NCBI RefSeq assembly: GCF_017306585.1
Contig: NZ_JAFKIC010000157.1
Location: 1-37,099 of the forward strand
Source of the DNA: Mesorhizobium sp.
Lineage (GTDB): Bacteria > Pseudomonadota > Alphaproteobacteria > Rhizobiales > Rhizobiaceae
DNA: 37,099 nt
Direction: 5' to 3'
In this document: one piece after another, positions 23,601 through 37,099 of the stretch
Position numbering within the stretch: the stretch's first letter is position 1
Layout: every line of letters begins with the position of its first letter
Program-made: the position numbers and the translations under genes
Notes under the pieces: model-generated
Seen by the model: only the letters and a program-made list of their open reading frames with translations
The model's database searches: none
What the model was told of the DNA's origin: nothing

Positions 23601-23646
23601 ACCGGACTCCTGTTGTCTGCCTCGGATGCCGATTGCACTTTATGGT

Positions 23647-24291
23647 TCAGGCCGCGACGCTGGCCGGCTGCAGCGCCGTCCCGTCCAGAACCGCCGCCAC
23701 GACATCGGCCGAATTGCTGACCACGCCGAAATGCGTCGCAATGTCGTAAAGCGAGCTTTCCTGTTCGCGTGGTCCCGTGGCCGCGCAGCAATCGCTCGGC
23801 ACCACCACCTCGTAGCCCTGGAAAAAGGCGTCATGGACGGTCGATCGCACGCAGATGTTGGTGACCACGCCGAAGATGATCAACTGATCGACCTGCATAT
23901 CCTTGAGCGTCAGGTCGAGGTCGGTCTGGAAGAAGGCCGAGTAGCGCCGCTTGATGACATGGATCTCGTCGTCGCGGGCTCCGAGATCCTCGATGATTTC
24001 GGGTCCCCAGCTTCCTTCCACGCAATGCGGCGTGCGCTTCACCCATTCGCGTTCGCGGCGCATGCCCGGCCGGTGCGCGTCATGGACCCAGATCACCGGG
24101 ACGCCACTTGCCCGCGCGGCGTCGATCACGGCCAGTTGCGGCCCGACCAGTGCCTCATATCCGGGCAGCACCATGGCCCCGCCGGGCTTGCAGAATTCAT
24201 TGACCATATCGATGACGATAACAGCGGCGCGTCGCGGATCGAGGCGCACCGCATCGTCGTGCCGATGTGAGGAAAAAACGTCCACGGCCAT
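23647..24291 (-). CDS. Isochorismatase-type cysteine hydrolase
   Basis: A 214-residue protein of the isochorismatase-like hydrolase family. The catalytic triad can be read as D in VIVIDMVNEF, K in VIKRRYSAFF and C in GVVTNICVRST; the cis-peptide region precedes the cysteine as usual. Members with the Cys nucleophile hydrolyse amides such as maleamate, N-carbamoylsarcosine, ureidoacrylate or nicotinamide. ATG 24291 is chosen over 24324 because AAAGGAGA precedes it. It lies with marR and the enamidase-like gene on one strand and could release ammonia from a ring-opened amide. The substrate is not determined. Confidence 0.87.
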   Translation of the reverse strand: MAVDVFSSHRHDDAVRLDPRRAAVIVIDMVNEFCKPGGAMVLPGYEALVGPQLAVIDAARASGVPVIWVHDAHRPGMRREREWVKRTPHCVEGSWGPEIIEDLGARDDEIHVIKRRYSAFFQTDLDLTLKDMQVDQLIIFGVVTNICVRSTVHDAFFQGYEVVVPSDCCAATGPREQESSLYDIATHFGVVSNSADVVAAVLDGTALQPASVAA

Positions 24292-24309
24292 GGCGGTCTC
24301 CTTTGGTCG

Positions 24310-24329
24310 ATCGTTGATGCTCATACAAA
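24310..24329 (-). promoter_or_regulatory. 20-bp motif before the isochorismatase-type gene (left copy of inverted pair)
   Basis: The plus-strand sequence ATCGTTGATGCTCATACAAA is the reverse complement, with one mismatch, of 24469-24488. It lies 19-38 bp before the hydrolase start, directly behind the ribosome-binding site region, where a repressor would block initiation. Confidence 0.6.
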
Positions 24330-24468
24330 AAACCCTGGCGGGTGCCAAGTCAATCCCGTTCGACGCAAAGCTGCGATCACCGGCCTTGCGCACGCGGTTC
24401 GCACAAGCGTATGCGCTATTTGTCCTGCGCGATATAAGCTTGACAAGGGTCGGCAATCATGTGCTCGA

Positions 24469-24488
24469 TTTGTATGACCATCAACGAT
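24469..24488 (+). promoter_or_regulatory. 20-bp motif before the epimerase gene (right copy of inverted pair)
   Basis: TTTGTATGACCATCAACGAT lies 38-57 bp before the epimerase start. The match to the left copy at 19 of 20 positions in opposite orientation in a 234-bp divergent region is far above chance for unconstrained DNA. Each copy points toward the gene it precedes, so a shared regulator, most simply the local MarR protein, is likely. Confidence 0.6.
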
Positions 24489-24525
24489 AATCAAGCCGCT
24501 GAGCTTGCGCAGCCGAGGCCCTGAT

Positions 24526-25377
24526 ATGAAGACCATCGTCACCGGAGCCAGTGGCCTTCTCGGCCGCCATGTGGCCGAGGCTCTGCTTGCCGCCGGCCAT
24601 GATGTGCTGGGCATCGATACGGTGGCGCCGGTCGGGGATGGATGGCGGCACGCCATTGCCGACCTGACTGATTTGGGATCAACCGTGCAGCTCGTGCGCG
24701 ATTGCGATGCCGTCGTGCATATCGCGGCCATCCCGCGGCCGACCGGCCGGGCCGGCGGCGAGGTGTTCAGGACCAACATCGCGACCGCCTACAATGTCGT
24801 CGAAGCCGCTGCCCTGGCCGGCATCGGGCGCTTCGTCTATGCCTCATCCTTCAGCGTCTTCGGTTATCCCTTTTTCGAGAAACCGGTCATTCCACCCTAT
24901 CTGCCGGTCGACATGAACCAGCCGGTCGGCGCGCAGGATCCCTACGGCCTGTCGAAATGGCTGGGCGAGGAAATCGTCGATGCGGCGGTGCGGCGCGGCG
25001 CCTTTTCGGCCGTCAGCATCCGCATGCCATGGATCCAGACCCCGCAATCCTTCTTCGCCGGCGTCGGTCCGCGCCGCGCCACGGCCGAAAGCGCCCGCGA
25101 CCTTTGGGCCTACCTCGACGCGCGCGATGCCGGCCAGGGGTTCCTGCGCGCACTCGAATGGCAAGGCGAGGGCCATCTGCGCGTCCTGCTCAGTGCCGAA
25201 GATACGTTCATGGAAGAGGAGACCGAGGCGCTGGTGCGCCGGGTCTATCCAGGTGTTGCCCTGTCGCGGCCGATCGCGGGTTTCGGGTCCGTGCTCGATA
25301 CATCGCATGCGCGTGAAACGATCGGCTTCGAGCCACGGCATTCCTGGCGGTCCTATTCGAAGCTGGAGAGCGAATGA
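24526..25377 (+). CDS. NAD-dependent epimerase/dehydratase family protein (extended SDR)
   Basis: A 283-residue extended-SDR protein: TGASGLLGRHVAEAL for nucleotide binding, DAVVHIAAIPRPTG, the serine in FVYASSFSVFGYP and the YxxxK pair in DPYGLSKWLGEE. These enzymes oxidise, epimerise or dehydrate sugar-like or uronate substrates with NAD. ATG 24526 has GAGG upstream. It overlaps the SDR downstream by ATGA. A uronate/ribose-derived or other hydroxy-acid substrate is possible; the nearby nucleoside hydrolases would release ribose, but no direct link is shown. Confidence 0.85.
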   Translation: MKTIVTGASGLLGRHVAEALLAAGHDVLGIDTVAPVGDGWRHAIADLTDLGSTVQLVRDCDAVVHIAAIPRPTGRAGGEVFRTNIATAYNVVEAAALAGIGRFVYASSFSVFGYPFFEKPVIPPYLPVDMNQPVGAQDPYGLSKWLGEEIVDAAVRRGAFSAVSIRMPWIQTPQSFFAGVGPRRATAESARDLWAYLDARDAGQGFLRALEWQGEGHLRVLLSAEDTFMEEETEALVRRVYPGVALSRPIAGFGSVLDTSHARETIGFEPRHSWRSYSKLESE

Positions 25378-26183
25378 TGAAACGGTTCGACCAGAAAAAG
25401 GTTCTCGTCACCGGCGGCGCGGGCGCCATAGGCGGCGCCGCGGTCCGGCGCTTCCTCGATGAGGGAGCCCGGGTCGCCATCGTCGACCGCAACGGCGCCG
25501 CAGCCCGGCAACTGGCCGGCTCTCTCGGTGAAAACGCCATCGCCATCGAAGCCGACGTCACCGACGAGAAGAATGTGCGCAGCGCCGTCGAGGAGACCGT
25601 CCAGGCATTCGGCGGACTGGACGTGGTGTTCAATAACGCCGGAATATCGGGCGTCGTCGCGCCCGTGCATGAACTGCCGGTCGAGGACTGGGACGCGATT
25701 ATCCGCATCAATCTGCGTGGCATCTTCCTGGTACTGCAGGCCTCGCTCCAGGCAATGATCAAGGCCGGCGCCGGTGGATCGATCGTCAATATGGGGTCGT
25801 CCATGGCGGGATGGGACGTGCTTTCGGGCGGCGCCGGCTATGTCGCGTCGAAGCATGGCGTGGTCGGACTGACCCGTGTCGCGGCACTCGATGCCGCGCC
25901 CTATGGCATACGCGTCAATGCCATCTGCCCCGGTGTCATCGAGACGACGCTCGGCGTGCCGGCTTCCGGCGACGGCGATTTCAAAAGCAGCGTCCAGCAT
26001 TTCGCCGATCGCATCCCGTTGCGCCGCATCGGCCAGCCGGACGATGTCGCGGCCGCCGTGGCTTTCCTTGCTTCGGAGGAGGCAAGACATGTTACCGGCG
26101 TCGACTGGCTGATCGACGGCGGCCAGACCTTGCAGAGCTGGGCCAACGCGCCGGCCGGCGACGTGTTTCCGAAATACCGCTAG
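25374..26183 (+). CDS. Short-chain dehydrogenase/reductase
   Basis: A 269-residue classical SDR: TGGAGAIGGAAV (cofactor), NNAGISG, catalytic serine in VNMGSSMAGWD, YVASKHG (Tyr and Lys) and ICPGVIETTLG. An acidic residue after the second strand (AIVDRNGAAA) suggests NAD preference. The start overlaps the epimerase gene. Role: oxidation or reduction of a hydroxy/keto intermediate in the same pathway. Confidence 0.9.
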   Translation: MMKRFDQKKVLVTGGAGAIGGAAVRRFLDEGARVAIVDRNGAAARQLAGSLGENAIAIEADVTDEKNVRSAVEETVQAFGGLDVVFNNAGISGVVAPVHELPVEDWDAIIRINLRGIFLVLQASLQAMIKAGAGGSIVNMGSSMAGWDVLSGGAGYVASKHGVVGLTRVAALDAAPYGIRVNAICPGVIETTLGVPASGDGDFKSSVQHFADRIPLRRIGQPDDVAAAVAFLASEEARHVTGVDWLIDGGQTLQSWANAPAGDVFPKYR

Positions 26184-26279: not shown

Positions 26280-27563
26280 TCAGAGACCCAGCCGGTCCTT
26301 CACTCGTCCTGAAAGGATCGCCGCCTTCACGCCCACCGGCCAGAAGCGGTGGAAGCGGATCGGCTTGAGCGGCGAGATCGGCATCGGAAAGGGCGGCGTC
26401 TCGTCGTCCCGCAGGCGCTGCGCCAGAGCCGCACCCATCGCCGAAGCCATGGCAACGCCACGGCCGTTATAGCCGAGGCAGATCAGGATGCCGTCTTCCG
26501 GCTCGTGAATGTGCGGAAGGTGGTCCTTGGTGATCGCGACCCGGCCATTCCAGCCGTGGGTCCAGCGTGTCCCCGCAAGCGCTGGCCAGAGCCGCAGCGC
26601 ATAGTCGGTGAGGTAGCGGATGGCGGCGGCATCGTCGATGGATTTCATCGGCCCCCGGCCGCCCATCAGAAGGCGGTTCTGCGCGTCGACGCGGTAGTAG
26701 ACGGTTATGTTGCCGGCCTCGTAGAGAACGGGCCGTTCCGGCAGGATCGTGGCCGCCACCGCCGACGGCAACGGCTCGCTCGCCGCAATCGCGCTGAATA
26801 CCGGAACCAACGATTGCTCCAGGCCTGGCCAAAGGCCGCCTGTATATCCGTTGGTTGCGATGAGGACCTTTTCGGCGCTGACGGAACCCCTGGCGGTCTT
26901 GAGCAGCCATCCGCCCGCCTCGCGGCGCAGCGAAAGGACCTCGCTATCGCCGAATATCCGCGCACCGGCGCCTTGAGCGGCGGCTGCCAGGCCAAGGGTG
27001 TATTTCAGCGGATGGAGGTCGCCGCCACGGGCGTCGAACAGGCCGGATATATATCTGTCCGTCCCGGTGCGCTCCGCCATCACCTTTGCGTCCAGCATGC
27101 CGACCGGCATCCCCCGGCGCTGGCATTGCGCCGCCGTGGCGCGCACGGCGGCTTCCGGCTTCGGCCTTATGGCGGCGCGTAAGGTGCCGTGCTGCCTTGC
27201 ATCGCAGGCGATGGACAGGCGCTTTATCAGGCCAAAGGTGAAATCCGGCGCGGCGTAGGAGAAGTCGACCATCCGTGGCCCGAGGTCAGGCCCGAACATC
27301 GCCTCGATCGTGTCGGGATCGTATTTGAGGCCGGGATTGACCTGGCCGCCATTTCGTCCCGAGGCGCCCCAGCCCGGCTGATGCGCTTCGAGCACGGCTA
27401 CGTCGTCACCGGCCTCCGCCAGATGCAAGGCCGCCGACAGGCCGGTGAAGCCCCCGCCGACAATGGCGACCCGCGCCCGTCGCGCGCCGGCAAGGGCAGC
27501 GTAGTCGCCGGTGCCGCCTGCCGTGTCGCGGTAGAGGCTCCTGGGCGGGCTGCGTTCGGACAT
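26280..27563 (-). CDS. FAD-dependent amine/amino-acid oxidoreductase (DadA/OrdL-like)
   Basis: A 427-residue DAO-fold flavoprotein: IVGGGFTGLSAALHLAEAG, GWGASGRNGGQVNPGLKYD, GLFDARGGDLHPLKYT, IATNGYTGGLWP and CLGYNGRGVAMASAMG. It is homologous to the oxidase at 3419-4717 with the same C-terminal layout. Ribosome-binding signal is weak (AAGAG, rather far upstream). It lies 133 bp after the HisC-like gene on the same strand, so it may share its transcript. Expected activity: oxidation of a secondary or primary amine to aldehyde plus ammonia or amine and hydrogen peroxide or reduced quinone. Substrate unknown. Confidence 0.85.
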   Translation of the reverse strand: MSERSPPRSLYRDTAGGTGDYAALAGARRARVAIVGGGFTGLSAALHLAEAGDDVAVLEAHQPGWGASGRNGGQVNPGLKYDPDTIEAMFGPDLGPRMVDFSYAAPDFTFGLIKRLSIACDARQHGTLRAAIRPKPEAAVRATAAQCQRRGMPVGMLDAKVMAERTGTDRYISGLFDARGGDLHPLKYTLGLAAAAQGAGARIFGDSEVLSLRREAGGWLLKTARGSVSAEKVLIATNGYTGGLWPGLEQSLVPVFSAIAASEPLPSAVAATILPERPVLYEAGNITVYYRVDAQNRLLMGGRGPMKSIDDAAAIRYLTDYALRLWPALAGTRWTHGWNGRVAITKDHLPHIHEPEDGILICLGYNGRGVAMASAMGAALAQRLRDDETPPFPMPISPLKPIRFHRFWPVGVKAAILSGRVKDRLGL

Positions 27564-27696
27564 GTGGCAAGGCTCTTACGATAAGCGGCTCGGATGTGGC
27601 GTGACCGTGCATACCGCGAGAAAGTTCATGCGGAGCGGCTGGCCTTCGGGACATCGTGGGAGAAGCCCGAGGCAATTCTGCATGGCTTTCCCGAAA

Positions 27697-28800
27697 TCAC
27701 AACAGCCGCGATAGGGCGGCCATGAAATGATCGTTCTCCGACGGTGAGCCGATGCTGACCCGCACATAGGTGTCGAAGCCTTCCTGCTTCCACGGTTTGA
27801 CGATGACGCCATCGCGCAACAGGCCTTCGACAAAGGCAGAGGCATTTTGCCGGCAGTCGAAGAAGAGGAAGTTTCCTCGCGAAGGGGCGACCTTGAGCCC
27901 TTTGTTTCGCAGGAAACTCTCGACACGTGCCCGCTCCGCCCGGGCCAGCGCGACGACGTGAGCGAGGTGCTCGTCATCGGCGAGCGCCGTAAGCGCGGCG
28001 GCCTGGGCCATGCCGTTGACGTTGAAAGGCGTGCGCACCCTGTCGAGCAATCCGCGCAACTGCGGGTCGCCGGCAATGCCGAAGCCGATCCTGAGCCCTG
28101 CAAGGCCGAACGCCTTGGAAAATGTCCTGAGCACGATCCACGGCCGGTCGCTTTTGGCCAGCAGGGGCAGGGCGGAGGCGTAGTCTTCCCCCTCGGCATA
28201 TTCGGCGTAGGCTTCATCCACGACGACAAGCGTTTCGTCGCCGGCCGCGCCCAGCACCTTCGACAGATCGTCCCTCGACAGCCAACTGCCGACCGGGTTC
28301 ATCGGGTTCGAGAACAGGAGCATCCGAGGGCTTCCGCGCACCGCCTCGGTCAGGGCGTCCACGTCGATGGTGAGATCGCTTTTGGGGCCAACGCGTTTGA
28401 CACTCGCGCCCATCAGCGTCGCATAGTCCTCATGCAGCGGGAACGACGGGTAAAGCGTGACGACGCTATCCCCGGGCCGCAGGACGGCACGACTGATGAC
28501 GGACAGAAGGTCCTCCGAGCCATTGCCGAGGATGACCTGATCCTCGGTGACCGCGTATTTGGCCGCGATGGCCTGGCGCAGTTCGCGTCCGGCCGGGTCC
28601 GGATACAGCCGGAACATTTCGGCGCTGCCCTGCATCATTCCAGCCAGCATCGGGCTCGGCCCAAGAGGGTTTTCGTTCGAGCCCAGCTTGGCGATCCTGG
28701 CCGGAGCATATCGCTGCATGACCTCGGCGATGGTCAGCCCGGAATTGTAGGGCGACAGGCGTGTGACTTCGGCGCGGACCATATCCAGGGCTTTCGACAC
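27697..28800 (-). CDS. HisC-like aminotransferase (fold type I PLP enzyme)
   Basis: A 367-residue aminotransferase of the histidinol-phosphate aminotransferase group: KLGSNENPLGPSP, LYPDPAGRELRQAIA, GNGSEDLLSVISRAV, NPMNPVGSWLS (normally NPNNPTG), VVVDEAYAEYA and PLP lysine in RTFSKAFGLAGLRIGFG. Length is standard. The start is GTG 28800 with AAGGAG eight bases upstream. The context is catabolic (HisD-like, HutC-like, dehydrogenases), not histidine biosynthesis, so it probably transaminates a related amino-alcohol or amino-acid derivative. It is transcribed away from the SDR operon, with a shared operator-bearing region between them. Confidence 0.85.
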   Translation of the reverse strand: MSKALDMVRAEVTRLSPYNSGLTIAEVMQRYAPARIAKLGSNENPLGPSPMLAGMMQGSAEMFRLYPDPAGRELRQAIAAKYAVTEDQVILGNGSEDLLSVISRAVLRPGDSVVTLYPSFPLHEDYATLMGASVKRVGPKSDLTIDVDALTEAVRGSPRMLLFSNPMNPVGSWLSRDDLSKVLGAAGDETLVVVDEAYAEYAEGEDYASALPLLAKSDRPWIVLRTFSKAFGLAGLRIGFGIAGDPQLRGLLDRVRTPFNVNGMAQAAALTALADDEHLAHVVALARAERARVESFLRNKGLKVAPSRGNFLFFDCRQNASAFVEGLLRDGVIVKPWKQEGFDTYVRVSIGSPSENDHFMAALSRLL

Positions 28801-28942
28801 GGGGCGGGCTCCTTCTTCACCGGCCGACGGACTGGGTTGTCGTCCGGCTTTTCAAACTCCGGGTCCCGCTGCATCCTGCCCGGGCTGGCCGGTCGCCGAT
28901 GGATGCGGCGGGGAATGCCACAAATAGCCTAGCCGAAATAAT

Positions 28943-28962
28943 TTGTATATGCTTGTATATGT
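28943..28962. promoter_or_regulatory. Tandem decamer operator candidate, HisC-like/SDR divergent promoter
   Basis: TTGTATATGC directly followed by TTGTATATGT, 9 of 10 identical, in a 216-bp divergent region (28801-29016). The first decamer recurs exactly at 34461-34470. TGTATATAC-like sites are typical for HutC-subfamily GntR proteins, and such a regulator is encoded at 32269-33000. Confidence 0.6.
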
Positions 28963-29016
28963 AACCTGATCTGTTAGTCTCGACCTGATGGGGCCGAGGC
29001 TGCCAAGGAGGATTAC

Positions 29017-29790
29017 ATGCGCAACGCCGCTCTCTTTGACCTCACAGGCCGGAAGGCGCTTGTCACCGGCGCTAGCCGCGGCATCGGGCGCAGCATCGCC
29101 GAGGCGCTGAGCGCCGCCGGCGCCGAGGTCGCTGTGACCGCGCGCAGCCTGGCTTCCCTCGAAGAAACGACAGCAGCCATCCGTGCGGCTGGTGGCGTTG
29201 CGCATGCCGTCGCCCTCGATGTCACCGATGTCGTCGGATGCCGGACAGCCACCGCCGAGGCTGTGCGCCTGCTTGGCGGTCTCGATATCCTCGTCAACAA
29301 TGCAGGGATGGAAGAGGTCCGCCCCTCGCTCGATGTGGACGAGGCTCTGTGGGACCGGATCGTCGACACCAATCTCAAGGGCGCCTTCTTCTGCGCGCAG
29401 GCGGCGGCGCGGCACATGCGCGACGCCCGGCGTCCCGGCGCCATCATCAATCTGTGCTCGCTGACGTCGGAAGTAGGCATTCCCACGGCAGTGCCGTACG
29501 GCTCCTCGAAGTCGGGCCTGCTCGGCATGACCCGGGCGCTCGCGGCGGAGTGGGCGGAACTGGGCATTCGGGTCAACGCCATCGCTCCGGGCTATTTCAG
29601 GACGGCGATGACGGATGTGTTCTACAGCAACGAGGCATGGCAGCAGTCCATGCTGGCCAAGATACCGCAGCACCGTTTCGGCGATCTCCGCGACCTGCAC
29701 GGCGTCGCCGTGTTCCTGGCATCGGATGCGGCGGCCTACATCACCGGCCAGTCCATTCCGGTGGATGGCGGATTTCTGGCATCGATCTGA
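29017..29790 (+). CDS. Short-chain dehydrogenase/reductase
   Basis: A 257-residue classical SDR: TGASRGIGRSIAEAL, NNAGMEEVRPS, catalytic serine in LCSLTSEVG, YGSSKSG (Tyr, Lys) and APGYFRTAMTD. An arginine after the second strand (TARSLASLEE) suggests NADP may be accepted. AAGGAGGA gives a strong ribosome-binding site. First gene of SDR-HisD-like-MDR, downstream of the tandem decamer at 28943. With the next two genes it gives the enzyme classes of the HpsO/HpsN/HpsP set for dihydroxypropanesulfonate, one of two substrate hypotheses. Confidence 0.9.
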   Translation: MRNAALFDLTGRKALVTGASRGIGRSIAEALSAAGAEVAVTARSLASLEETTAAIRAAGGVAHAVALDVTDVVGCRTATAEAVRLLGGLDILVNNAGMEEVRPSLDVDEALWDRIVDTNLKGAFFCAQAAARHMRDARRPGAIINLCSLTSEVGIPTAVPYGSSKSGLLGMTRALAAEWAELGIRVNAIAPGYFRTAMTDVFYSNEAWQQSMLAKIPQHRFGDLRDLHGVAVFLASDAAAYITGQSIPVDGGFLASI

Positions 29791-29872
29791 GGGCGGCTCG
29801 TCGATGTCTCGAATTGAACGTGTTTCGCGGATGTGGCCGGCTGGCGCATCGCTCTGAACAGAAGGAAAATCC

Positions 29873-31195
29873 ATGTCCGACATCAGCTTCCACGATCTGT
29901 CGTCCCTCGACGCCACCCGGCGGGCCGGCCTGCTCAAGCGCGCCGAGAGCGATCTGTCGGTCTTCGTCGAAAAGGTCCGCCCGATCATCCAGGCCGTCAG
30001 GGACGAGGGTGACGCCGCCCTGGTCCGTTTCGCCCGGGAGCTCGACAAGGCCAACATTGCCGAGGGCGGACTGAAGGTCACGGAAGCCGAGTTCGACGCG
30101 GCGTTCGACAAGGTCGAGAAGGACGTCGTGGAGAGCATCGGCTTCGGCATCGAGAACATCAGGCATTTCCATGAGGAGCAGAAGCCCGAGACGATGTGGC
30201 TGAAGGAAGTCCGTCCCGGAGCCTATGCCGGCGACCGCTACACGCCGATCGCCTCGGTCGCGCTTTACGTGCCGCGCGGCAAGGGCGCCTTTCCGTCGGT
30301 TACGATGATGACCTCGGTTCCGGCCGTCATCGCCGGCGTGCCGCAGATCGCCATCGTGACGCCGCCGACGGCGGATGGTTCGGTGGATGCGGCCACGCTG
30401 GTCGCCGCCCGCCTCGCCGGGGTGAACACCGTCTACAAATGCGGCGGCGCCCAGGCCGTTGCGGCCGTGGCCTATGGCACCGAGACCGTCAAGCCGGCGC
30501 TCAAGATCGTCGGCCCCGGCAGTCCCTGGGTGGTGGCGGCCAAGAGCGTGCTGTCGTCGATCATCGACACCGGTCTGCCCGCCGGCCCGTCGGAAGCCGT
30601 CATCTTTGCCGATGACAGCGTCGATGGCGGCCTTGCCGCGCTCGACCTTTTGATCGAGGCCGAGCATGGCCCGGATTCCTCCGCCTATCTCGTCACGCAC
30701 AGCCGCAAGGTCGCCGAAGCCGCGCTGGCGGCGATCCCTCAGCACTGGTCGCGCATGACCGAGCAGCGCGTGGAGTTTTCGCGCGCGGTGCTGACCGGCA
30801 AGCGCGGCGGCATCGTGCTGACCGCATCGCTGGAGGACAGCTATCGCTTCATCAACGACTATGCGCCCGAGCATCTGGAAATCCTGTCCAAGGAACCGTT
30901 CGCGCATCTCGGGCACATCACCGAAGCGGCCGAAATCCTGATGGGCCCGCACACGCCGGTGACCCTTGCAAACTTCGTCCTCGGGCCCAATGCCGTGCTG
31001 CCGACCAGCCGTTGGGCGCGGACCTATGGGCCGCTTTCGGTGACGGATTTCGTCAAGCGCTCGTCGGTCGGCTATGTCACCTCCGCCGCCTATCCGGAAC
31101 TGGCGAAACATGCCCGCAGGCTCGCCCGCTACGAGGGCTTCAGCTCCCATGAAAACGCGGTCTCTGAAATCCGCGACGGCTACCTCGCCGGCTGA
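29873..31195 (+). CDS. Histidinol dehydrogenase-like oxidoreductase (HisD paralogue)
   Basis: A 440-residue member of the HisD superfamily, which oxidises an alcohol to a carboxylate in two NAD-dependent steps. Conserved parts: YVPRGKGAFPSVTMM, CGGAQAVAAVAYGT, LPAGPSEAV, LIEAEHGPDSSAYLVT, DYAPEHLEI with the catalytic Glu-His pair, and YEGFSSHENAV with the late His. Unlike biosynthetic HisD, GPGN is GPGSPW, the residue three before the first zinc-binding His is E not Q, and the GDYASGTNHVLPT segment is replaced by LANFVLGPNAVLPT, losing an Asp ligand and a His. A non-histidinol substrate is likely. AAGGAAA precedes the ATG. Confidence 0.87.
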   Translation: MSDISFHDLSSLDATRRAGLLKRAESDLSVFVEKVRPIIQAVRDEGDAALVRFARELDKANIAEGGLKVTEAEFDAAFDKVEKDVVESIGFGIENIRHFHEEQKPETMWLKEVRPGAYAGDRYTPIASVALYVPRGKGAFPSVTMMTSVPAVIAGVPQIAIVTPPTADGSVDAATLVAARLAGVNTVYKCGGAQAVAAVAYGTETVKPALKIVGPGSPWVVAAKSVLSSIIDTGLPAGPSEAVIFADDSVDGGLAALDLLIEAEHGPDSSAYLVTHSRKVAEAALAAIPQHWSRMTEQRVEFSRAVLTGKRGGIVLTASLEDSYRFINDYAPEHLEILSKEPFAHLGHITEAAEILMGPHTPVTLANFVLGPNAVLPTSRWARTYGPLSVTDFVKRSSVGYVTSAAYPELAKHARRLARYEGFSSHENAVSEIRDGYLAG

Positions 31196-31210
31196 GCGGA
31201 GACGATGGCG

Positions 31211-32236
31211 ATGAAGGCGGCACGGCTCTATGGTCCCGGCGACCTGCGGGTGGAGGATATCGCCCCTCCGGGCATTCCGGACACCGGCTGGGTGAAACTC
31301 AGGATCGACGCCGCCGGCATCTGCGGCTCGGATCTGCACAATTTCCGGACCGGCCAATGGATAAGCCGGTCGCCTTCGACGGCGGGCCATGAGCTGACAG
31401 GCACGGTCATCGCGCTTGGCGATGGCGTCGACACCATTGCGATCGGCGACAGGGTGGTTGCCGATTCACGTTTCTGGTGCGGAGACTGCGCGCAGTGCCA
31501 TGCCGGCAGGCGTCACCTCTGCGCTTCTCTGGGCTTCGTCGGTGAGATCTGCGACGGCGGCTTCGCCGAACAGGCCGTGCTGCCCGCGCGCCTGCTGCAT
31601 GTCATAGATGCCGATGTCGACGAGCGGGTCGCCGCCATGGCCGAACCGCTCGCCGTGGCACTGCACGCGGTGCGGCGCCTGCCGAAGACGGCAGGCTCGG
31701 TGCTTGTGGTCGGTTGCGGGCCGATCGGTGGTCTCGCCGCGCTGCTGCTCACTCGAACCTTTGCCGGCACGGTTCTCGTCGCCGACCGCAACCACGCGCG
31801 CTGCGCCCGCGTGGCGCGGGTGACCGGCGCCACGATTGTCGATCTGAACCGTGATGCCATTGCGGCCGCAACGGCCAATGCTCCGTTGCTGGCGGCCGTC
31901 GAGGCGACCGGCAGTATCGCAGCACTCAATCAACTGCTTGGTGTTCTCGATTCCGGCGGCACCGTCGCCATGGTCGGCATCTTTCATGGCCGTCTCGACA
32001 TCGATCCCAATCTTCTGGTGGAGCGCGAGATCGCATTGCTGGGATGCCATGCCTTTGCCGATGAACTGCCCGACGCCGTGGGGATGCTGGCTGAGTTGAG
32101 CGAACCGCTGCTGGCCCTGACCGATCGCGAAATCGGTCTGGACGACGTTCCGGCCGCCTATGAGCGGCTTTTGGCCGGCAAAAGCGATGGCTTGAAAACA
32201 ATCATACGCATGCGGCAACCTGTTGAGCCGGCGTGA
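31211..32236 (+). CDS. Zinc-dependent medium-chain alcohol dehydrogenase
   Basis: A 341-residue MDR dehydrogenase. Catalytic zinc residues are in GICGSDLHN and GHE; the structural zinc lobe FWCGDCAQCHAGRRHLC has four cysteines; the NAD fold is VLVVGCGPIGGLAA. ATG 31211 is chosen because GGAG lies nine bases upstream; ATG 31205 would be only three bases from it. Such enzymes oxidise polyols or secondary alcohols (sorbitol/threonine/L-idonate-type). It lies 15 bp after the HisD-like gene and 32 bp before the GntR gene, so it belongs to one transcript. Confidence 0.9.
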   Translation: MKAARLYGPGDLRVEDIAPPGIPDTGWVKLRIDAAGICGSDLHNFRTGQWISRSPSTAGHELTGTVIALGDGVDTIAIGDRVVADSRFWCGDCAQCHAGRRHLCASLGFVGEICDGGFAEQAVLPARLLHVIDADVDERVAAMAEPLAVALHAVRRLPKTAGSVLVVGCGPIGGLAALLLTRTFAGTVLVADRNHARCARVARVTGATIVDLNRDAIAAATANAPLLAAVEATGSIAALNQLLGVLDSGGTVAMVGIFHGRLDIDPNLLVEREIALLGCHAFADELPDAVGMLAELSEPLLALTDREIGLDDVPAAYERLLAGKSDGLKTIIRMRQPVEPA

Positions 32237-32268
32237 TTTCCGATAGCTTGCCGGAAAGGATTTTTGAG

Positions 32269-33000
32269 ATGATCGATCTGCCCGATACGGCGAGCCCCCT
32301 CTACGAGAAGGTGAAGGACTACATCCTGACCAACATCGGGACGGGCCGGTGGGGCAAGGATCGCAAGCTTCCGTCCGAGAATGAGCTGGTGGTCTCGCTT
32401 GGTGTCTCTCGCATGACGGTGCACAGGGCCTTGCGGGAACTGACCGCGGCCGGCTTCCTGATCCGGCTGCAGGGTGTCGGCACATTCATCGCGCCGCCTC
32501 GGCCGCAATCGACGCTGATCGAGATCAACAACATCGCGGCGGAGATCGTCGAGCGCGGCAACAGGCACCGTTCCGAAGTTCTGGTCCTGGAAACGATCAC
32601 GCCGACGAAGGAGCTTGCCTTGTCCTTCGAATTTGCAAAGCGGGCCTCGATCTATCATTCGGTCGTCGTCAATTTTGAGAACGACCTGCCGGTGCAACTG
32701 GAAGAGCGCTTCGTCAATCCTGCGCTGATACCCGATTACGACAAGCAGGATTTTTCCAAGACGGCGACTTACGACTACCTCATGCAGAAGACGCCGGTGA
32801 CCGAGGTCGAGCATATCATCTCCGCCATCCCGGCCGATGCCGAGACGGCCAGGCATCTGAACATCGATGTCGGCAGCTGCTGCCTGTTCCTGCACCGCCG
32901 GACCTGGACTGGCGCGGTCGTGGCCACCATCAGCAAGCTGACCTATGCCGGCAGCCGCTACTCGCTCGGCAGCCGGTATTCTCCTTCCAGAACAAGCTGA
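32269..33000 (+). CDS. GntR family regulator, HutC/UTRA subfamily, HutC-like
   Basis: A 243-residue regulator. Winged helix at about residues 8-75 (SPLYEKVKDYIL, KLPSENELVVSLGVSRMTVH, GFLIRLQGVGTFI), then a UTRA domain with LPVQLEERFVNPALIPDY, TYDYLMQKTPVTEVEH, LFLHRRTWTG and AGSRYSLGSRY. These segments closely follow HutC, the urocanate-responsive histidine-utilisation repressor, more than other UTRA proteins I know. ATG 32269 is used since GGAAAGGA precedes it; an in-frame GTG at 32233 overlaps the previous stop. It probably controls this cluster through the TGTAT-rich tandem sites. The effector may be an imidazole compound or a different acid. Confidence 0.87.
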   Translation: MIDLPDTASPLYEKVKDYILTNIGTGRWGKDRKLPSENELVVSLGVSRMTVHRALRELTAAGFLIRLQGVGTFIAPPRPQSTLIEINNIAAEIVERGNRHRSEVLVLETITPTKELALSFEFAKRASIYHSVVVNFENDLPVQLEERFVNPALIPDYDKQDFSKTATYDYLMQKTPVTEVEHIISAIPADAETARHLNIDVGSCCLFLHRRTWTGAVVATISKLTYAGSRYSLGSRYSPSRTS

Positions 33001-33039
33001 CACGGACGGGCAAGGCGAGACGCAGAGGTTTCACTATAG

Positions 33040-33059
33040 ATGTATGTACATGTATTTAT
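33040..33059. promoter_or_regulatory. Tandem decamer operator candidate before the kinase-like gene
   Basis: ATGTATGTAC directly followed by ATGTATTTAT, with a central ATGTACAT palindrome, in the 107-bp gap after the GntR gene. It shares the TGTAT core and 10-bp phase with 28943-28962 and 34461-34480. Confidence 0.5.
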
Positions 33060-33107
33060 GATGGCGAATTCGGCTTTGGCGCACTGTCTGGCCGGAGAGG
33101 ACGGCAT

Positions 33108-34400
33108 ATGACGCCGACATCGAGCCGAACGGCGCGCATCCGGGCTCTCGCGCAGCATGACGTTGCCGAAGCGCAGCGCGGGCTGTGCATGCTGCTGAGC
33201 GACCTGTTCGGAATGAACCCCGACAACGTCCGCATCAATTTCGACAAATACAGCCTCAACTCGCTGAACGGCTTCTTCGACAGCGACGGCAACGCCTACT
33301 TCTTCAAGTTCCATCAGGAGGAGCGGGAAGAGGCGATGGCGGGCGAGTACTACCGGGCCGAAATCCTCTCGCGCGCCGGCCTGCCGGTGGATCAGCCCGT
33401 CCATATGTCCACCGAGCCTGGTGAGCAGATCCTCGTCTATCACCGCCGCACGGATCCGAGGTTTTCGGATGTGCTGGTCGCGCTGGATGCCGAGGACGAT
33501 CCCGAAAAGCGGCGCGAAGCGGTGCAGGCCGAGCGCGATCTCAGCGCCAGGCTGCTCGAGGTCTATCGCGAGACGCTACATCCGGTGACCATCGCTGAGG
33601 TGTCGGCGGAGCCGATCCACAGGCTCTTCCATGAGCGGCTGATCGATGCCGGTACGCGCTTGTCGCCCGGCGGGCGTCTCGCCGATTTCTACATCGGCAA
33701 ACCATTCGTCTTTCCGGGCCTCGAACTCGACTGGGACCGTTTCTCGCGGTTGAAATTCGTCATCAATGGCCGGCCCTACCGTCGCAGCATCGGCGAGCTT
33801 TTCGACGCTGCAGCGGCGCGGCTGCGGCCGGACAGGCTTGCCGATGCCGGCGGCGTGGTCGCGCATGGCGACGCCCACAATGCCAATGTCTGGTACACCG
33901 AGAAGGCGGGGAGGGCGCAACTATCCTTCTTCGATCCCGCCTTTGCCGGCTCGCATATCCCGACGCTGCTGGCCGAGGTGAAGGCGACGTTCCACAACAT
34001 CTTTGCTCATCCCTTCTGGCTCTACGATCCGGTTGCGGCGACGCAGGCTTTTCATGCGTACGCTCGGCTGGAGGGAAACCTTCTTCACATCGACACGGAC
34101 TGGGACCTCAGCCCTGTCCGTCGCGACCTGCTGGAGGTCAAGGCGACGGCGCTGTGGCAGCCCTTGCTGCTGGAGCTCAAACGGCGCGGCATGCTGCCGG
34201 CCGATTGGCGCACGGTGCTGCGATTGGGGCTGTTCCTGTCGCCCACCCTGGTCATGAATCTGCGGGCCGGCGCCCGCAGTCATACGCCGGTCTCTTCCCT
34301 CATTGCATTTGCGGTCGCGGTCATGGTCGGCAGCGAGCCCGATGGCGGTGCCGACCGGGTGACCGCTTTTCTCGACCGGATCGATCCTGACAAAGCGTGA
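33108..34400 (+). CDS. APH-fold phosphotransferase-like protein
   Basis: A 430-residue protein with the aminoglycoside/choline-kinase fold. The catalytic loop is VAHGDAHNANVW, the metal-binding aspartate lies in LSFFDPAFAG, and the N-lobe holds a nucleotide-binding lysine candidate in AYFFKFHQEER. GGAGAGG precedes ATG 33108. Relatives phosphorylate small hydroxyl or amino compounds (choline, homoserine, methylthioribose, aminoglycosides). The catabolic context and own operator argue for a metabolic kinase acting on the imported compound, not drug resistance. Substrate unknown. The protein is longer than most APH enzymes because of a helical C-terminus. Confidence 0.75.
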   Translation: MTPTSSRTARIRALAQHDVAEAQRGLCMLLSDLFGMNPDNVRINFDKYSLNSLNGFFDSDGNAYFFKFHQEEREEAMAGEYYRAEILSRAGLPVDQPVHMSTEPGEQILVYHRRTDPRFSDVLVALDAEDDPEKRREAVQAERDLSARLLEVYRETLHPVTIAEVSAEPIHRLFHERLIDAGTRLSPGGRLADFYIGKPFVFPGLELDWDRFSRLKFVINGRPYRRSIGELFDAAAARLRPDRLADAGGVVAHGDAHNANVWYTEKAGRAQLSFFDPAFAGSHIPTLLAEVKATFHNIFAHPFWLYDPVAATQAFHAYARLEGNLLHIDTDWDLSPVRRDLLEVKATALWQPLLLELKRRGMLPADWRTVLRLGLFLSPTLVMNLRAGARSHTPVSSLIAFAVAVMVGSEPDGGADRVTAFLDRIDPDKA

Positions 34401-34460
34401 ACTCACATTGAGGAGGGCTGGTGGATGCTCACGGTCGAACCAAAATCAGGTCACCCCAAC

Positions 34461-34480
34461 TTGTATATGCATGTATGTAT
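34461..34480 (+). promoter_or_regulatory. Tandem decamer operator candidate upstream of the ABC transporter
   Basis: TTGTATATGC followed by ATGTATGTAT. The first decamer is identical to the one at 28943. It ends seven bases before a TTGACA hexamer, so binding would abut or overlap RNA polymerase. Confidence 0.6.
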
Positions 34481-34487
34481 TTTAGCC

Positions 34488-34516
34488 TTGACATCGGCTC
34501 CCGCTGACGCTGAAAT
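34488..34516 (+). promoter_or_regulatory. Predicted sigma70-type promoter of the ABC transporter
   Basis: A consensus TTGACA (34488-34493) is followed after 17 bases by TGAAAT (34511-34516), four of six matches to TATAAT. It lies in the 245-bp gap before the binding-protein gene and just downstream of the tandem decamer. Confidence 0.5.
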
Positions 34517-34645
34517 ATCCCTGCATTTCACCATGAAGTGGCGGAGAAGAAGCCGAGGCACAGTGCCGCAAGAGCTGAAACCCGCAGTCTCACCAGACCG
34601 GATGCCTGGGTAAAAAAGCGGTCTGATCATCAAGGGGAACTAAAG

Positions 34646-35656
34646 ATGATGCGTAACCTGACAGGACAATTCCGCGCGTTCGTAATGGCTGCCGCCATCG
34701 GGCTCGCCGCCGCCCCGGCAGCCCGTGCAGCCGATGCGGCCATTCCCACCACGCCCGAGGCCGGGTCGTTCAAGATCGGCATCGAGCCCTGGCTCGGATA
34801 TGGCCAGTGGCACGTCGCCGACGCCAAGGGGCTGTTCAAGGCCAACGGCCTTTCGGACGTGCAGATCGTCAATTTCGCCGAGGACAAGGACCTCAACGCC
34901 GCGCTCGCCAGCGGCCAGCTCGACGCCGCCAACATCGCGACCCATACCGCGATGGGCATGGTCGCGGCCGGCCTGCCGGTGAAGATCGTGCTGCTGCTCG
35001 ATGTCTCGATGACGGCCGATGCCATCATCGCCGGCAAGGATGTCACCTCCATCGCCGACCTCAAGGGCAAGCAGGTCGCCTTCGAGGAAGGCACGACCAG
35101 CGACATCCTGCTCAAATACGCGCTGGCGAAAAACGGCATGTCGGTCGCCGATGTCCAGCCGGTTCCGATGCCGGCCGCCGATGCGGGCGGCGCGCTGATC
35201 GCCGGCCGTGTGCCGGTGGCGGTCACTTACGAACCCTATCTGACCGTCGCGATGGCGCAGAACAAGGACGTCAAGCTGCTGTTCACCGCTGGCGAGGACC
35301 CCGGCCTGATCAGCGACGTGCTGGTGGTGCGTGACGACGTGATCAAGTCGAAGCCCGGCCAGGTGCTCGCCATGATCAAGAGCTGGGACGCCGCGCTGAA
35401 GGACTATAACGCCGACACCGCAGGCGGTCGCGCCATCATCGCCAAGGCGGTCGGCTCCGACGTCAAGGACCTCAACACCGCTTTCGACGGCGTGCGCTAT
35501 TATTCACTCGCCGAGAACAAGACGGCGCTCACCGGTGACTTTGCCACCAAGACATTCGCCGATGTCGAAGCCGCCGCCAAGAACGCCAAGCTGCTTCAGA
35601 CCGACGTCACGCCGGATCAGATGATCGACCCGTCTTTCGTCAAGGCGGCGCAATGA
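34646..35656 (+). CDS. Periplasmic binding protein of a NitT/TauT-type ABC importer
   Basis: A 336-residue protein with a Sec signal peptide (MMRNLTGQ, hydrophobic core, cleavage around ARAADA) and the SsuA/TauA/NMT1 type II fold: FKIGIEPWLGYGQWHVADAKG, ALASGQLDAANIATHTAMG, DLKGKQVAFEEGTTSDILL and VAVTYEPYLTVA. AAGGGGAA precedes the tandem ATGs; in-frame sequence to 34538 lacks a signal peptide start and is not used. Ligands in this family include sulfonates, nitrate, pyrimidine precursors and others. Its promoter carries the HutC-like operator, tying it to the dehydrogenase cluster. Confidence 0.9.
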   Translation: MMRNLTGQFRAFVMAAAIGLAAAPAARAADAAIPTTPEAGSFKIGIEPWLGYGQWHVADAKGLFKANGLSDVQIVNFAEDKDLNAALASGQLDAANIATHTAMGMVAAGLPVKIVLLLDVSMTADAIIAGKDVTSIADLKGKQVAFEEGTTSDILLKYALAKNGMSVADVQPVPMPAADAGGALIAGRVPVAVTYEPYLTVAMAQNKDVKLLFTAGEDPGLISDVLVVRDDVIKSKPGQVLAMIKSWDAALKDYNADTAGGRAIIAKAVGSDVKDLNTAFDGVRYYSLAENKTALTGDFATKTFADVEAAAKNAKLLQTDVTPDQMIDPSFVKAAQ

Positions 35657-35683
35657 CGAAGCCGGATCGCGGGGGTAACGCAG

Positions 35684-36547
35684 ATGTCCGCTGAGCCTCC
35701 CGCGAAAGCCGGTCCGCCGCCTGCTTCATCGAAGCCGGCGGCGGGCAAGCCGATACGCCGCCGATCCTCCGGGATCGGCGTGCCCATCGCCAGGTCCCGC
35801 TTCCTGATGATCGCCGTGGCTGTCTTTGTCGGGCTCGGCCTTGCCTGGTGGGCGGCGACCGGGCTCGAATGGGTAAAACCCATCTTCCTGCCGTCGCCGG
35901 GCAGCGTCGCCACCCAGATCGCCAAGCTGGCGACCGACGGCACTTTGCTGCTGGATCTCCAGGCCTCGATCTACCGGATATCCATAGGCTTCCTCCTCGC
36001 ATCGGCGCTGTCGATACCGATCGGCGTGCTGATCGGCAGCTTTCGCTCCTGGGAGGCCGCCATCGAGCCGCTGGTGGATTTCATCCGCTACATGCCGGTC
36101 GTCGCTTTCGTGCCGCTCTCCATCCTGTGGGCCGGCACCGGCGACACGCAGAAATTCCTCATCATCTTCATCGGCACCTTCTTCCAGCAGGTGCTGATGA
36201 TCATGGACAATGTCAAACGGGTTCCCACCGATTTCATCGGCCTTGGCCGCACGCTCGGCCTGCCGGACCGCAAGATCCTGACCCGTATCGTTGTGCCCAG
36301 CGCCTTGCCGGGCATATGGGATACGCTGCGCATCAGCCTCGGCTGGGCATGGACCTGGCTGGTGCTGGCCGAGCTTGTCGCGGCGACATCCGGACTCGGC
36401 TATCGTATCACCGTGTCGCAGCGTTATTTCCAGACCAACACCATCATCGGCTACATCCTGCTCTTGGGCGTCCTCGGTCTCATCACCGACCAGGTGATGA
36501 AGGCGCTGGAAAAGGTGCTCTTCCGGCAGGACGGCCACTCGCAATGA
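35684..36547 (+). CDS. NitT/TauT-type ABC transporter permease
   Basis: A 287-residue inner-membrane permease with a proline/alanine-rich, basic cytoplasmic N-terminus (about 40 residues) and then about six hydrophobic segments. FLPSPGSVATQIAKL, FIRYMPVVAFVPLSILWAGTGD and the coupling motif LGRTLGLPDRKILTRIVVPSALP are typical of SsuC/TauC proteins. It follows the binding protein by 27 bp and precedes the ATPase by 10 bp. Confidence 0.92.
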   Translation: MSAEPPAKAGPPPASSKPAAGKPIRRRSSGIGVPIARSRFLMIAVAVFVGLGLAWWAATGLEWVKPIFLPSPGSVATQIAKLATDGTLLLDLQASIYRISIGFLLASALSIPIGVLIGSFRSWEAAIEPLVDFIRYMPVVAFVPLSILWAGTGDTQKFLIIFIGTFFQQVLMIMDNVKRVPTDFIGLGRTLGLPDRKILTRIVVPSALPGIWDTLRISLGWAWTWLVLAELVAATSGLGYRITVSQRYFQTNTIIGYILLLGVLGLITDQVMKALEKVLFRQDGHSQ

Positions 36548-36557
36548 GGACCAGCCG

Positions 36558-37099
36558 ATGAACGCTCCCAAGCTGCGCATCGCCGGCCTCCACAAGAGCT
36601 TCGGCACGGGAGAGCGTCGCACGGAAGTGCTGCGCGACATCAACCTCGATCTCGCCGACAATGAGTTCGTCTCGCTTGTCGGCACATCCGGCTGCGGCAA
36701 GAGCACACTCTTGTCGATCGTCGCTGGACTGCAGGATTTCGACGCTGGCGAACTCAGCATCGACGGCGCGCCGATCCTGCAGCCGGGCCTCGATCGTGGC
36801 GTCGTGTTCCAGTCCTACACGCTGCTTCCCTGGCTGACGGCGCGGCAGAATATCGAGTTCGCCCTCAAGGCCGCCGGCTACGATCGCTCGGCCTGCCGCG
36901 AGATCGCGCTCGAGCATCTCGACCTCGTCAAGCTGTCGCACAGCGCCGACCGCTTTCCATCAGAACTTTCGGGTGGCATGAAGCAGCGCGTCGCCATCGC
37001 GCGTGCGCTTTCCTACCGTCCCAAGATGCTCCTGATGTACGAGCCCTTCGGCGCGCTCGATGCCCTGACCCGGCACCAGATGCAGGAACTGCTGACCCA
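36558..37099 (+). CDS. NitT/TauT-type ABC transporter ATPase, partial, Walker B aspartate replaced by tyrosine
   Basis: The frame from ATG 36558 is open to the window end (about 180 residues). Walker A GTSGCGKST (residues 42-50), Q-loop VVFQSYTLLPW, signature LSGGMKQRVAIARAL and the D-loop FGALDALTRHQ are all normal for SsuB/TauB ATPases. At residue 161 the Walker B run reads LLMYEPFGALD instead of LLMDEPFGALD, from TAC in place of GAC (37038-37040). The lost aspartate normally coordinates magnesium, so ATP hydrolysis should be impaired unless this is a sequencing error. The C-terminus is outside the window. Confidence 0.92.
   Translation, partial: MNAPKLRIAGLHKSFGTGERRTEVLRDINLDLADNEFVSLVGTSGCGKSTLLSIVAGLQDFDAGELSIDGAPILQPGLDRGVVFQSYTLLPWLTARQNIEFALKAAGYDRSACREIALEHLDLVKLSHSADRFPSELSGGMKQRVAIARALSYRPKMLLMYEPFGALDALTRHQMQELLT

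What the first reader, a model, noticed from the sequence alone, without database searches (positions are those of the whole stretch)
26280..37099. Candidate undescribed catabolic system: HisC-like, HisD-like, HutC-like, kinase-like and TauT-type transporter
Catabolic relatives of three histidine-metabolism proteins are combined with an SDR, a zinc dehydrogenase, an APH-fold kinase, an FAD oxidase and a dedicated importer. SDR + HisD-like + MDR also equals the enzyme classes of the HpsO/N/P route for dihydroxypropanesulfonate, but the aminotransferase and kinase do not belong to that route. I know of no described pathway with this set.
Basis: partly seen in the sequence, partly recalled or inferred. 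Interest (0 to 1): 0.7.

Follow-up and report, generated by a model that had tools for sequence, protein, structure and literature searches.

The report
Hut-linked histidinol-type catabolic operon
A cluster of bacterial genes of unknown purpose, found in many root-associated bacteria including Sinorhizobium meliloti, looks like an undescribed front end of the histidine-degradation pathway that feeds some histidine-like (imidazole) alcohol into it.

Summary
The gene set is real and conserved. The core is SDR + HisD-like + MDR + an APH-fold kinase without a curated family; a HutC-type regulator, HisC-like aminotransferase, alpha-hydroxy-acid oxidase and one of two unrelated importers are frequent extras. 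HisD lies within 5 kb of the kinase in 77 of 80 named loci; the FAD oxidase is not core (9 of 80). The DHPS (HpsO/N/P) analogy fails on motif and clade. Best reading: an accessory branch of histidine utilisation. A HutC-type operator pattern occurs at two places in the host's 7.09 Mb genome, the hut promoter and this operon, and in several other genera the operon adjoins hut genes. The HisD-like protein has Glu and Asn where HisD has Gln and Asp; the same variant is the only HisD-family gene in some genomes and lies with hisF, hisA, hisH and hisB in one, so it is probably a second type of histidinol dehydrogenase used here catabolically. Substrate, product and the kinase's step are inferred. 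Ten searches of an open-licence library found no description of this set.

The parts
27697..28800 (-). HisC-like aminotransferase, divergent from the SDR
   Evidence: PRK05166 586 bits over cut-off 540; at >=55% identity in 38 of 80 kinase loci
28942..28962 (.). Imperfect HutC-type repeat TTTGTATATGCTTGTATATGT in the HisC/SDR divergent promoter
   Evidence: Read, seen in Mesorhizobium loci; 40 of 53 non-Mesorhizobium loci have TGTANN[TG]ACA within 260 bp upstream of the SDR
29017..29790 (+). Short-chain dehydrogenase (SDR)
   Evidence: PF13561/PF00106; at >=60% identity in 72 of 80 loci
29873..31195 (+). HisD-like dehydrogenase with the RGKGAF motif and Glu262/Asn367 at two metal-ligand positions (His265 and His426 retained; catalytic Glu333/His334)
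   Evidence: PF00815 451 bits; alignment with HpsN and HisD; signature in 77 of 77 kinase-linked HisD segments
31205..32236 (+). Zinc-type alcohol dehydrogenase (MDR)
   Evidence: PF08240/PF00107; at >=50% identity in 75 of 80 loci
32233..33000 (+). HutC-type GntR/UTRA regulator (an internal ATG at 32269 is a possible start)
   Evidence: TIGR02018 275 bits over cut-off 220; second-best of 47 matches to that family in the genome
33040..33051 (.). HutC-type operator ATGTATGTACAT upstream of the kinase gene
   Evidence: One of two places with WTGTATRKACAW in the 7.09 Mb genome, the other being the hut promoter
33108..34400 (+). APH-fold kinase without a curated family
   Evidence: Invariant K67, E80, HGDAHNAN 253-260 and D276 in 28 sequences; model pLDDT 92.5; Foldseek hits to APH(3'), methylthioribose kinase, ethanolamine kinase
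34460..34481 (.). Imperfect HutC-type repeat CTTGTATATGCATGTATGTATT upstream of the binding protein
   Evidence: Read; same site in Mesorhizobium loci
34646..35656 (+). Periplasmic binding protein, NMT1/SsuA-like (ORF opens at 34538)
   Evidence: PF09084, PF13379; below the sulfonate and taurine cut-offs
35684..36547 (+). ABC permease
   Evidence: PF00528
36558..37099 (+). ABC ATPase, cut by the contig end
   Evidence: PF00005; open at the 3' end
26280..27563 (-). FAD-dependent amine oxidoreductase; peripheral, not core
   Evidence: PF01266; at >=60% identity in 9 of 80 loci, all Mesorhizobium

Best explanation
This is a HutC-controlled accessory branch of histidine utilisation. A dedicated importer brings in a histidine-related imidazole compound, most likely an imidazole alcohol of the histidinol / imidazole-acetol / imidazolyl-propanediol type. 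The operon's dehydrogenases, kinase and HisC-like aminotransferase turn it into L-histidine, with the HisD-like protein (a metal-site variant of histidinol dehydrogenase) making the final CH2OH to COOH oxidation. Histidine is then degraded by the ordinary hut enzymes for nitrogen and carbon. Shown: the gene set, its conservation, the operator shared with hut, hut linkage in relatives, the HisD type and its being the only HisD-family gene elsewhere. Inferred: that the regulator acts on these sites, the substrate class, the product and the order of steps. Preferred order (a guess): SDR/MDR oxidise a C2 hydroxyl to imidazole-acetol; the kinase makes imidazole-acetol phosphate; the HisC-like enzyme makes histidinol phosphate; a housekeeping phosphatase makes histidinol; HisD makes histidine. 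The alpha-hydroxy-acid oxidase of some relatives would handle imidazole-lactate through imidazole-pyruvate.
For: (1) Operator. WTGTATRKACAW matches two places in the 7.09 Mb genome, the hut promoter (C136:2193) and window 33040; reversed control 0. In six relatives it gives 19 sites: in five genomes all 15 lie at this operon or near hut genes; in Ancylobacter G565 1 of 4 is near hut, none at the operon (positions). TGTANN[TG]ACA lies within 260 bp upstream of the SDR in 40 of 72 loci (0 of 19 Mesorhizobium, 40 of 53 others) against 1.7% of random 260-bp stretches. TTGTATATACAA with up to 2 mismatches: 2 in the window, both at this operon, 0.02 expected. Pantoea has TTGTATATACAT just before its binding-protein gene. 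The published Phut consensus is TGTA-N2-TACA (PMC12977541, passages). (2) Linkage. hutU lies within 25 kb of the kinase in 5 of 39 carrier genomes, 0.34 expected, and in Aureimonas L055. Devosia has hutU-G-H-I-[box]-hutF-hutC-hisC-[box]-SDR; Ciceribacter the same order; in Pleomorphomonas hutI-hutH is divergent from the SDR with one box between. (3) 38 of 39 carriers have hutU. (4) HisD type. PRGKG[AS]FP + Glu + Asn in 77 of 77 segments. The same type is the only HisD-family gene in G237, G261, G034 (apart from a fragment) and G165, which have hisB; in G237 it lies with hisF, hisA, hisH and hisB. (5) Regulator over the HutC cut-off. (6) S. meliloti carries the operon on pSymA; hisC3, hisD2, the ABC genes and the GntR gene fall together with hutU/G/H in a tolC mutant (PMC2912261, table passages). 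(7) Alpha-hydroxy-acid oxidase in 18 of 80 loci, usually the gene after the kinase, also in Pacificitalea, and upstream of the importer in a Klebsiella plasmid operon.
Against: No substrate, product or regulator binding was tested. The operator pattern was written after seeing the sites, so it favours them. In the window alone TGTANNTACA with up to 1 mismatch is not above chance (2 found, 0.97 expected), and the one exact box precedes the kinase only; the SDR/HisC and importer promoters carry imperfect repeats. The reversed-pattern control gave 6 hits in G570 and 1 in G564 (0 in the other four). Pacificitalea has a HutC-type gene but no such box in its region; Ancylobacter loci have neither box nor a close HutC gene at the operon. 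The host's operon is on another contig than hut, and most carriers do not have the two adjacent. Histidinol itself needs only HisD, so the kinase, SDR and MDR demand a less obvious substrate. HutC-type regulators can change ligand. In the tolC array many nitrogen genes fall with hut, so common NtrC control could explain it. G112, G084 and G199 have this HisD type but no hisB match (81, 94 and 94% complete). L061 has the kinase without HisD. HisD without the kinase also exists (G148, L145: 61% identity beside a Pot-type importer).
Confidence: 0.62

Rival explanations
1. A sulfonate (DHPS or cysteinolate-like) pathway: SDR, HisD-like and MDR act as HpsO, HpsN and HpsP, with a TauT-type importer.
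For: The three enzyme classes match those beside hpsN in Cupriavidus pinatubonensis, and the binding protein is distantly SsuA-like.
Against: The HpsN motif GRY[A/S]H with His126 (PMC11382572, passages) is replaced by GKGAF; two metal-ligand residues differ; the HpsN rows form a separate clade, 100/100, and HpsN is 29.9% identical. Sulfonate and taurine cut-offs are not reached. It does not explain HisC, the kinase or the hut link.
Confidence: 0.05
2. A polyol or amino-polyol pathway unrelated to histidine; the HutC-type regulator was recruited and has a new ligand, and the hut linkage is a shared nitrogen-source neighbourhood.
For: SDR and MDR score best against sugar- and threonine-dehydrogenase models; two unrelated importer types serve the operon; the Pantoea and Klebsiella plasmid stretches show no annotated hutH, hutU or hutI, and the Pantoea GntR gene is far below the HutC cut-off; the kinase has no imidazole precedent known to me.
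Against: Operator shared with hut, also in 12 of 21 loci without the operon's own HutC-type gene, five of which have a hut-type hutC beside the operon; junction with hut in several genera; HisD type that is the only HisD-family gene beside hisB elsewhere. The Klebsiella stretch does hold an N-formylglutamate amidohydrolase gene about 9 kb away, whose role is open.
Confidence: 0.2
3. Simple L- or D-histidinol utilisation: HisD alone makes histidine; the other genes handle stereoisomers or side products.
For: This HisD type is the only HisD-family gene, presumably biosynthetic, elsewhere.
Against: Does not account for the kinase, which lies within 5 kb of HisD in 77 of the 80 loci that were found with it.
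Confidence: 0.13

Closest known systems
hut (histidine utilisation) operon and HutC regulon
   Same: HutC-family regulator over the curated cut-off, the same operator pattern, and physical junction with hutF-hutC or hutI-hutH in several genera
   Different: None of the operon's enzymes is a described hut enzyme; the HutC section of PMC5343134 (that section read) names hut enzymes and transporters, among them an ABC transporter HisXYZ predicted in Rhizobiales that could be this importer (not checked); its main text has no hisD or hisC
hpsN-hpsO operon of Cupriavidus pinatubonensis (DHPS)
   Same: HisD-family, SDR and MDR enzymes in one operon
   Different: HisD subgroup, motif and metal-ligand residues differ; the window set adds a kinase and HisC and has a different importer and regulator
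Sinorhizobium meliloti pSymA hisC3 - SMa0391/0392/0394/0396 - hisD2 - SMa0402 region
   Same: Same operon, 209035-221073 of NC_003037.1
   Different: PotD-type importer in place of the NMT1/TauT type, plus an alpha-hydroxy-acid oxidase. Seen in print only as array, RNA-target or binding-site entries (passages). The record carries no gene table here, so SMa names are matched from those papers by order and coordinates
Biosynthetic HisC and HisD
   Same: Same families; this HisD type is the only HisD-family gene in some alphaproteobacteria
   Different: Different genomic use; Glu/Asn in place of Gln/Asp at two metal-ligand positions; the HisC Arg322 position reads Lys in 33 of 40 segments, 7 not matched by my pattern (residue role recalled)

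Membership tests
HpsO/HpsN/HpsP (DHPS) route | HpsN motif GRY[A/S]H with the sulfonate-binding His126 | tested here: not met
   Window reads GKGAF, Phe140 at the His126 position (motif from PMC11382572, passages)
HpsO/HpsN/HpsP (DHPS) route | Protein falls in the HpsN clade | tested here: not met
   The window's 23-row clade has 100/99, the 3 HpsN-like rows 100/100; the tool warns that long branches meet
HpsO/HpsN/HpsP (DHPS) route | SDR and MDR partners in the same operon | tested here: met
   class level only
HpsO/HpsN/HpsP (DHPS) route | Sulfolactate lyase or another desulfonating enzyme nearby | not tested
   No explicit search was made
HutC regulon | HutC-family regulator | tested here: met
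   TIGR02018 275 bits, cut-off 220
HutC regulon | TGTA-N2-TACA operator shared with hut | tested here: met
   Two places genome-wide: hut promoter and 33040; pattern chosen after seeing the sites
HutC regulon | Regulator binds the operator and responds to urocanate or a relative | not testable with these tools
   Needs a binding assay
Histidinol dehydrogenase | Catalytic Glu-His pair | tested here: met
   E333/H334 align with Glu318/His319 of CpHpsN
Histidinol dehydrogenase | Canonical Gln, His, Asp, His metal ligands (recalled for E. coli HisD) | tested here: not met
   Glu262, His265, Asn367, His426; but the same variant is the only HisD-family gene in four genomes that have hisB
Histidinol dehydrogenase | Oxidises L-histidinol to L-histidine | not testable with these tools
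   Needs an enzyme assay
APH/choline-kinase superfamily | HGDxHxxN catalytic loop, Lys/Glu pair, metal-binding Asp | tested here: met
   Invariant in 28 sequences; residue roles recalled
APH/choline-kinase superfamily | Match to PF01636 | tested here: inconclusive
   13 of 23 members match, best 9.5e-6; the window protein itself has no match at E 1
TauT/SsuA sulfonate importer | Binding protein over a sulfonate or taurine cut-off | tested here: not met
   142.8 against 163.5; 50.4 against 304.25

The most novel reading that the evidence does not exclude
Bacteria have recruited the last steps of histidine biosynthesis, with a dedicated kinase, a HisC paralogue and a metal-site-swapped second type of histidinol dehydrogenase, into an upper catabolic pathway. 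It phosphorylates an imidazole ketone or polyol taken from the environment (such as imidazole-acetol, imidazolyl-propanediol or imidazole-glycerol) and channels it through histidinol phosphate and histidinol to histidine and the hut pathway.
Probability: 0.27. Interest if true: 0.78.

Novelty: new variant of a known kind. Interest (0 to 1): 0.6.

Why it matters
It gives a testable function to an operon carried by many rhizobia, including the model S. meliloti, that appears in print only as hisC3/hisD2, ABC transporter and GntR entries. If right, it points to an unrecognised imidazole nutrient of the root zone, a kinase family with no name, and a type of histidinol dehydrogenase with changed metal-ligand residues that also is the only HisD-family gene of some alphaproteobacteria. 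Second hisD genes in genome annotations may be misread.

Tried and rejected
DHPS/HpsN reading: rejected on motif, metal-ligand residues and clade. FAD oxidase as a member: rejected, 9 of 80 loci. Serinol/rhizobitoxine-type and Amadori (fructosamine kinase) ideas: considered from knowledge only, dropped because they explain neither HutC nor HisD. Literature: 10 searches (I saw listings and abstract openings) showed no description of a pathway with this set; the library is open-licence only, and the S. meliloti transportome paper of Mauchline 2006 is not held, so an inducer of the PotD-type importer may already be in print. The hut-proximity test used a 25 kb limit chosen after seeing the distances, and 39 of the 80 loci, picked by me for diversity (40 given, L055 not held); two of the five positives are both Rhizobium, and with four events P is 4e-4 instead of 2e-5; counting two HutU-like genes per genome gives 6e-4 for five. 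The 12 genomes were picked by me, 11 of them because one search had shown a close HisD. Two frames that I took for hisG in G034 and G261, and one taken for hisE in G237, had no NCBIfam hit at E 1e-40. HisD loci without the kinase gave no substrate clue. The HisC residue check is weak. Tree: the kinase-linked HisDs are not resolved as one group apart from the two sister rows.
Full report
WHAT IS THERE. The window is the whole 37,099-base contig C200 of a 7.09 Mb genome. The closest named relatives of its kinase gene that were returned are from Mesorhizobium, up to 90% identity. The ATPase is cut by the contig end.

CONSERVATION. A search with the kinase-like protein found 242 related places in named genomes, of which the best 80 were kept. 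In those 80 loci, at the identity limits stated: HisD 77, MDR 75, SDR 72, HutC-type regulator 55, HisC-like 38, NMT1/TauT-type binding protein 35, PotD-type binding protein 34, alpha-hydroxy-acid oxidase 18, FAD oxidase 9. Two of the three loci without HisD are short contigs (L014, L065); the third, L061, has full flanks and a lone kinase. Of 66 loci with full flanks none has both importers and 8 have neither at those limits. In a 289-genome class sample 9 have the kinase and all 9 have a HisD relative at E <= 1e-110, against 17 of 289. It is an accessory trait: 6 of 299 genomes in the phylum sample, and 3 of the 8 other same-genus genomes listed there. Plasmid copies occur in Klebsiella and Pantoea as binding protein-permease-ATPase-HisD-kinase-MDR-SDR. 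By tblastn with the window's genes, distant relatives may lack the MDR (L112-L116, L119), and in two small genomes only HisD and kinase of this set were found (L117, L118).

KINASE. No curated family hit at E 1e-5 and no PDB sequence hit for the window protein. The APH family is hit by 13 of 23 relatives, best E 9.5e-6. The model (pLDDT 92.5, pTM 0.91) matches aminoglycoside phosphotransferases, methylthioribose kinase and ethanolamine kinase; among the 50 rows shown query-normalised TM is 0.25-0.43 and identity 9-18%. The kinase residues are invariant in all 28 sequences. It is best called an active kinase of an unnamed family; its substrate cannot be read from this.

HISD TYPE. Positions were fixed on the HpsN of Cupriavidus pinatubonensis HN-2, whose numbering reproduces His126, Glu318, His319, Asp352 and His411 of the CpHpsN in PMC11382572 (passages). 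The window protein keeps the catalytic pair and two histidines but has Glu for the Gln and Asn for the Asp, and RGKGAF in the substrate loop. All 77 kinase-linked HisD segments share PRGKG[AS]FP with Glu and Asn. Two other host genes of this type (C96, C48) have RGKGFF. That Gln and Asp are metal ligands in E. coli HisD is recalled; the role of Asp352 and His411 in CpHpsN comes from the paper's passages. In a tree of 30 rows the type forms one group at 100/99, apart from the HpsN group at 100/100; the tool warns of long branches.

This type is not only catabolic. In 12 genomes scanned for PF00815, seven have a single HisD-family gene (G237, G261, G112, G165, G199, G084, and G034 apart from a fragment), and it is of this type. 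Of these, G237, G261, G034 and G165 have hisB; G112, G199 and G084 show none. In G237 the gene lies with hisF, hisA, hisH and hisB, all over a cut-off; in G034 and G261 it lies about 2 and 4 kb from hisB. The simplest reading is that this type is a working histidinol dehydrogenase. That is inference from gene content.

LINK TO HUT. The host's hut operon is on contig C136 (hutC, hutF, hutI, hutH, hutG, hutU; hutC), with ATGTATATACAT before hutI. WTGTATRKACAW occurs at two places in the genome, that one and window 33040, with 0 for the reversed pattern. The pattern was written after sites had been seen. In six relatives, Devosia G590, Pleomorphomonas G586, AFS002495 G591, Shinella G564 and S. 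psoraleae G570 have 3 sites each, all at this operon or near hut genes; Ancylobacter G565 has 4, one of them 3.7 kb from hutU and none at the operon. Reversed-pattern hits: 6 in G570, 1 in G564, 0 in the other four. Upstream of the SDR a TGTANN[TG]ACA site is found in 40 of 72 loci; none of the 19 Mesorhizobium loci has it there, and 1.7% of random stretches do. It is present in 12 of 21 loci without the operon's own HutC-type gene; five of these 12 have a hut-type hutC beside the operon (L055, L062, L064, L066, L074), and the other seven would need control in trans. Inside the window alone, TGTANNTACA with one mismatch is not above chance (2 against 0.97), while TTGTATATACAA with two mismatches is (2 against 0.02). 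Pacificitalea has no exact box. Gene order: Devosia hutU-G-H-I-[box]-hutF-hutC-hisC-[box]-SDR-[box]; Ciceribacter the same order up to the SDR; AFS002495 has the hut operon straight after the ATPase; Aureimonas has hut genes after the alpha-hydroxy-acid oxidase; R. subbaraonis has hutC beside hisC and the rest of hut some 8 kb further; Pleomorphomonas has hutI-hutH divergent from the SDR. hutU within 25 kb: 5 of 39 genomes, 0.34 expected (caveats in Tried and rejected).

EXPRESSION. S. meliloti 1021 carries the operon at pSymA 209035-221073 with a PotD-type importer and an alpha-hydroxy-acid oxidase. In a tolC mutant array hisC3 -11.4, SMa0391 -15.6, SMa0392 -8.3/-23.5, SMa0394 -10.5, SMa0396 -10.1, hisD2 -10.6 and SMa0402 -8.4 fall together with hutU -10.3, hutG -11.5, hutH -7.7, ntrB, ntrC and nitrate genes (PMC2912261, passages). 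This fits use as a nitrogen source but may only reflect NtrC control. SMa0392 is also a target of the AbcR1/2 small RNAs (PMC8844928, passages), and a PhaR site is listed for hisD2 (PMC12542648, passages). S. meliloti uses an inositol-monophosphatase-family protein as histidinol phosphatase (PMC5929573, passages), so a phosphatase for the proposed route exists outside the operon.

HOW IT MAY WORK. SDR, kinase and HisD plus HisC can be laid on the end of histidine biosynthesis: alcohol to imidazole-acetol, to its phosphate, to histidinol phosphate, to histidinol, to histidine. Relatives without a local HisC could use the biosynthetic one. The alpha-hydroxy-acid oxidase fits imidazole-lactate to imidazole-pyruvate. 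Every substrate in this paragraph is inferred.

AGAINST. See the Against line. The main weaknesses are that no substrate is shown, that adjacency to hut is a minority arrangement, that the operator pattern was chosen with the sites in view, and that in the window the exact box precedes the kinase gene only.

VERDICT. Real, conserved and, within the searches made, undescribed; best placed as an accessory branch of the hut regulon. The DHPS analogy is set aside.

Noticed in passing
   Followed up: partly
G000 contigs C96 (L121), C48 (L122) and C118 (L124): Further RGKGFF-type HisD genes beside NMT1/TauT-like importer genes (C96, C48), with two SDR-like genes on C48 and no kinase found; C48 and C118 each hold part of a HisD gene at or near an end.
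   Followed up: partly
carrier genomes: 23 of 39 have a second, weaker urocanase-like gene (about 674-703 bits against about 950-985), on another contig than the kinase gene; possibly for a modified urocanate.
   Followed up: no
window 16646-19266 (-): ABC ATPase and permease resembling the putative B6 ABC transporter models, below their cut-offs.
   Followed up: no
window 23052-26183: MarR-type, isochorismatase-like, NAD-epimerase and SDR genes (named by eye) kept in order next to the FAD oxidase in two Mesorhizobium loci, L024 and L027; the amidohydrolase at 21819 would lie outside the fetched flank.
   Followed up: partly
window 3419-5614 (-): 731-aa frame whose C-terminal part matches pipecolate oxidase AmaA below cut-off, as does the FAD oxidase at 26280.
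   Followed up: no
L117 and L118 (unnamed 2 Mb genomes G084, G199): HisD and kinase genes near a class I glutamine amidotransferase-like gene and a threonine-dehydratase-like gene (by eye), with no hisB match in either genome.
   Followed up: partly
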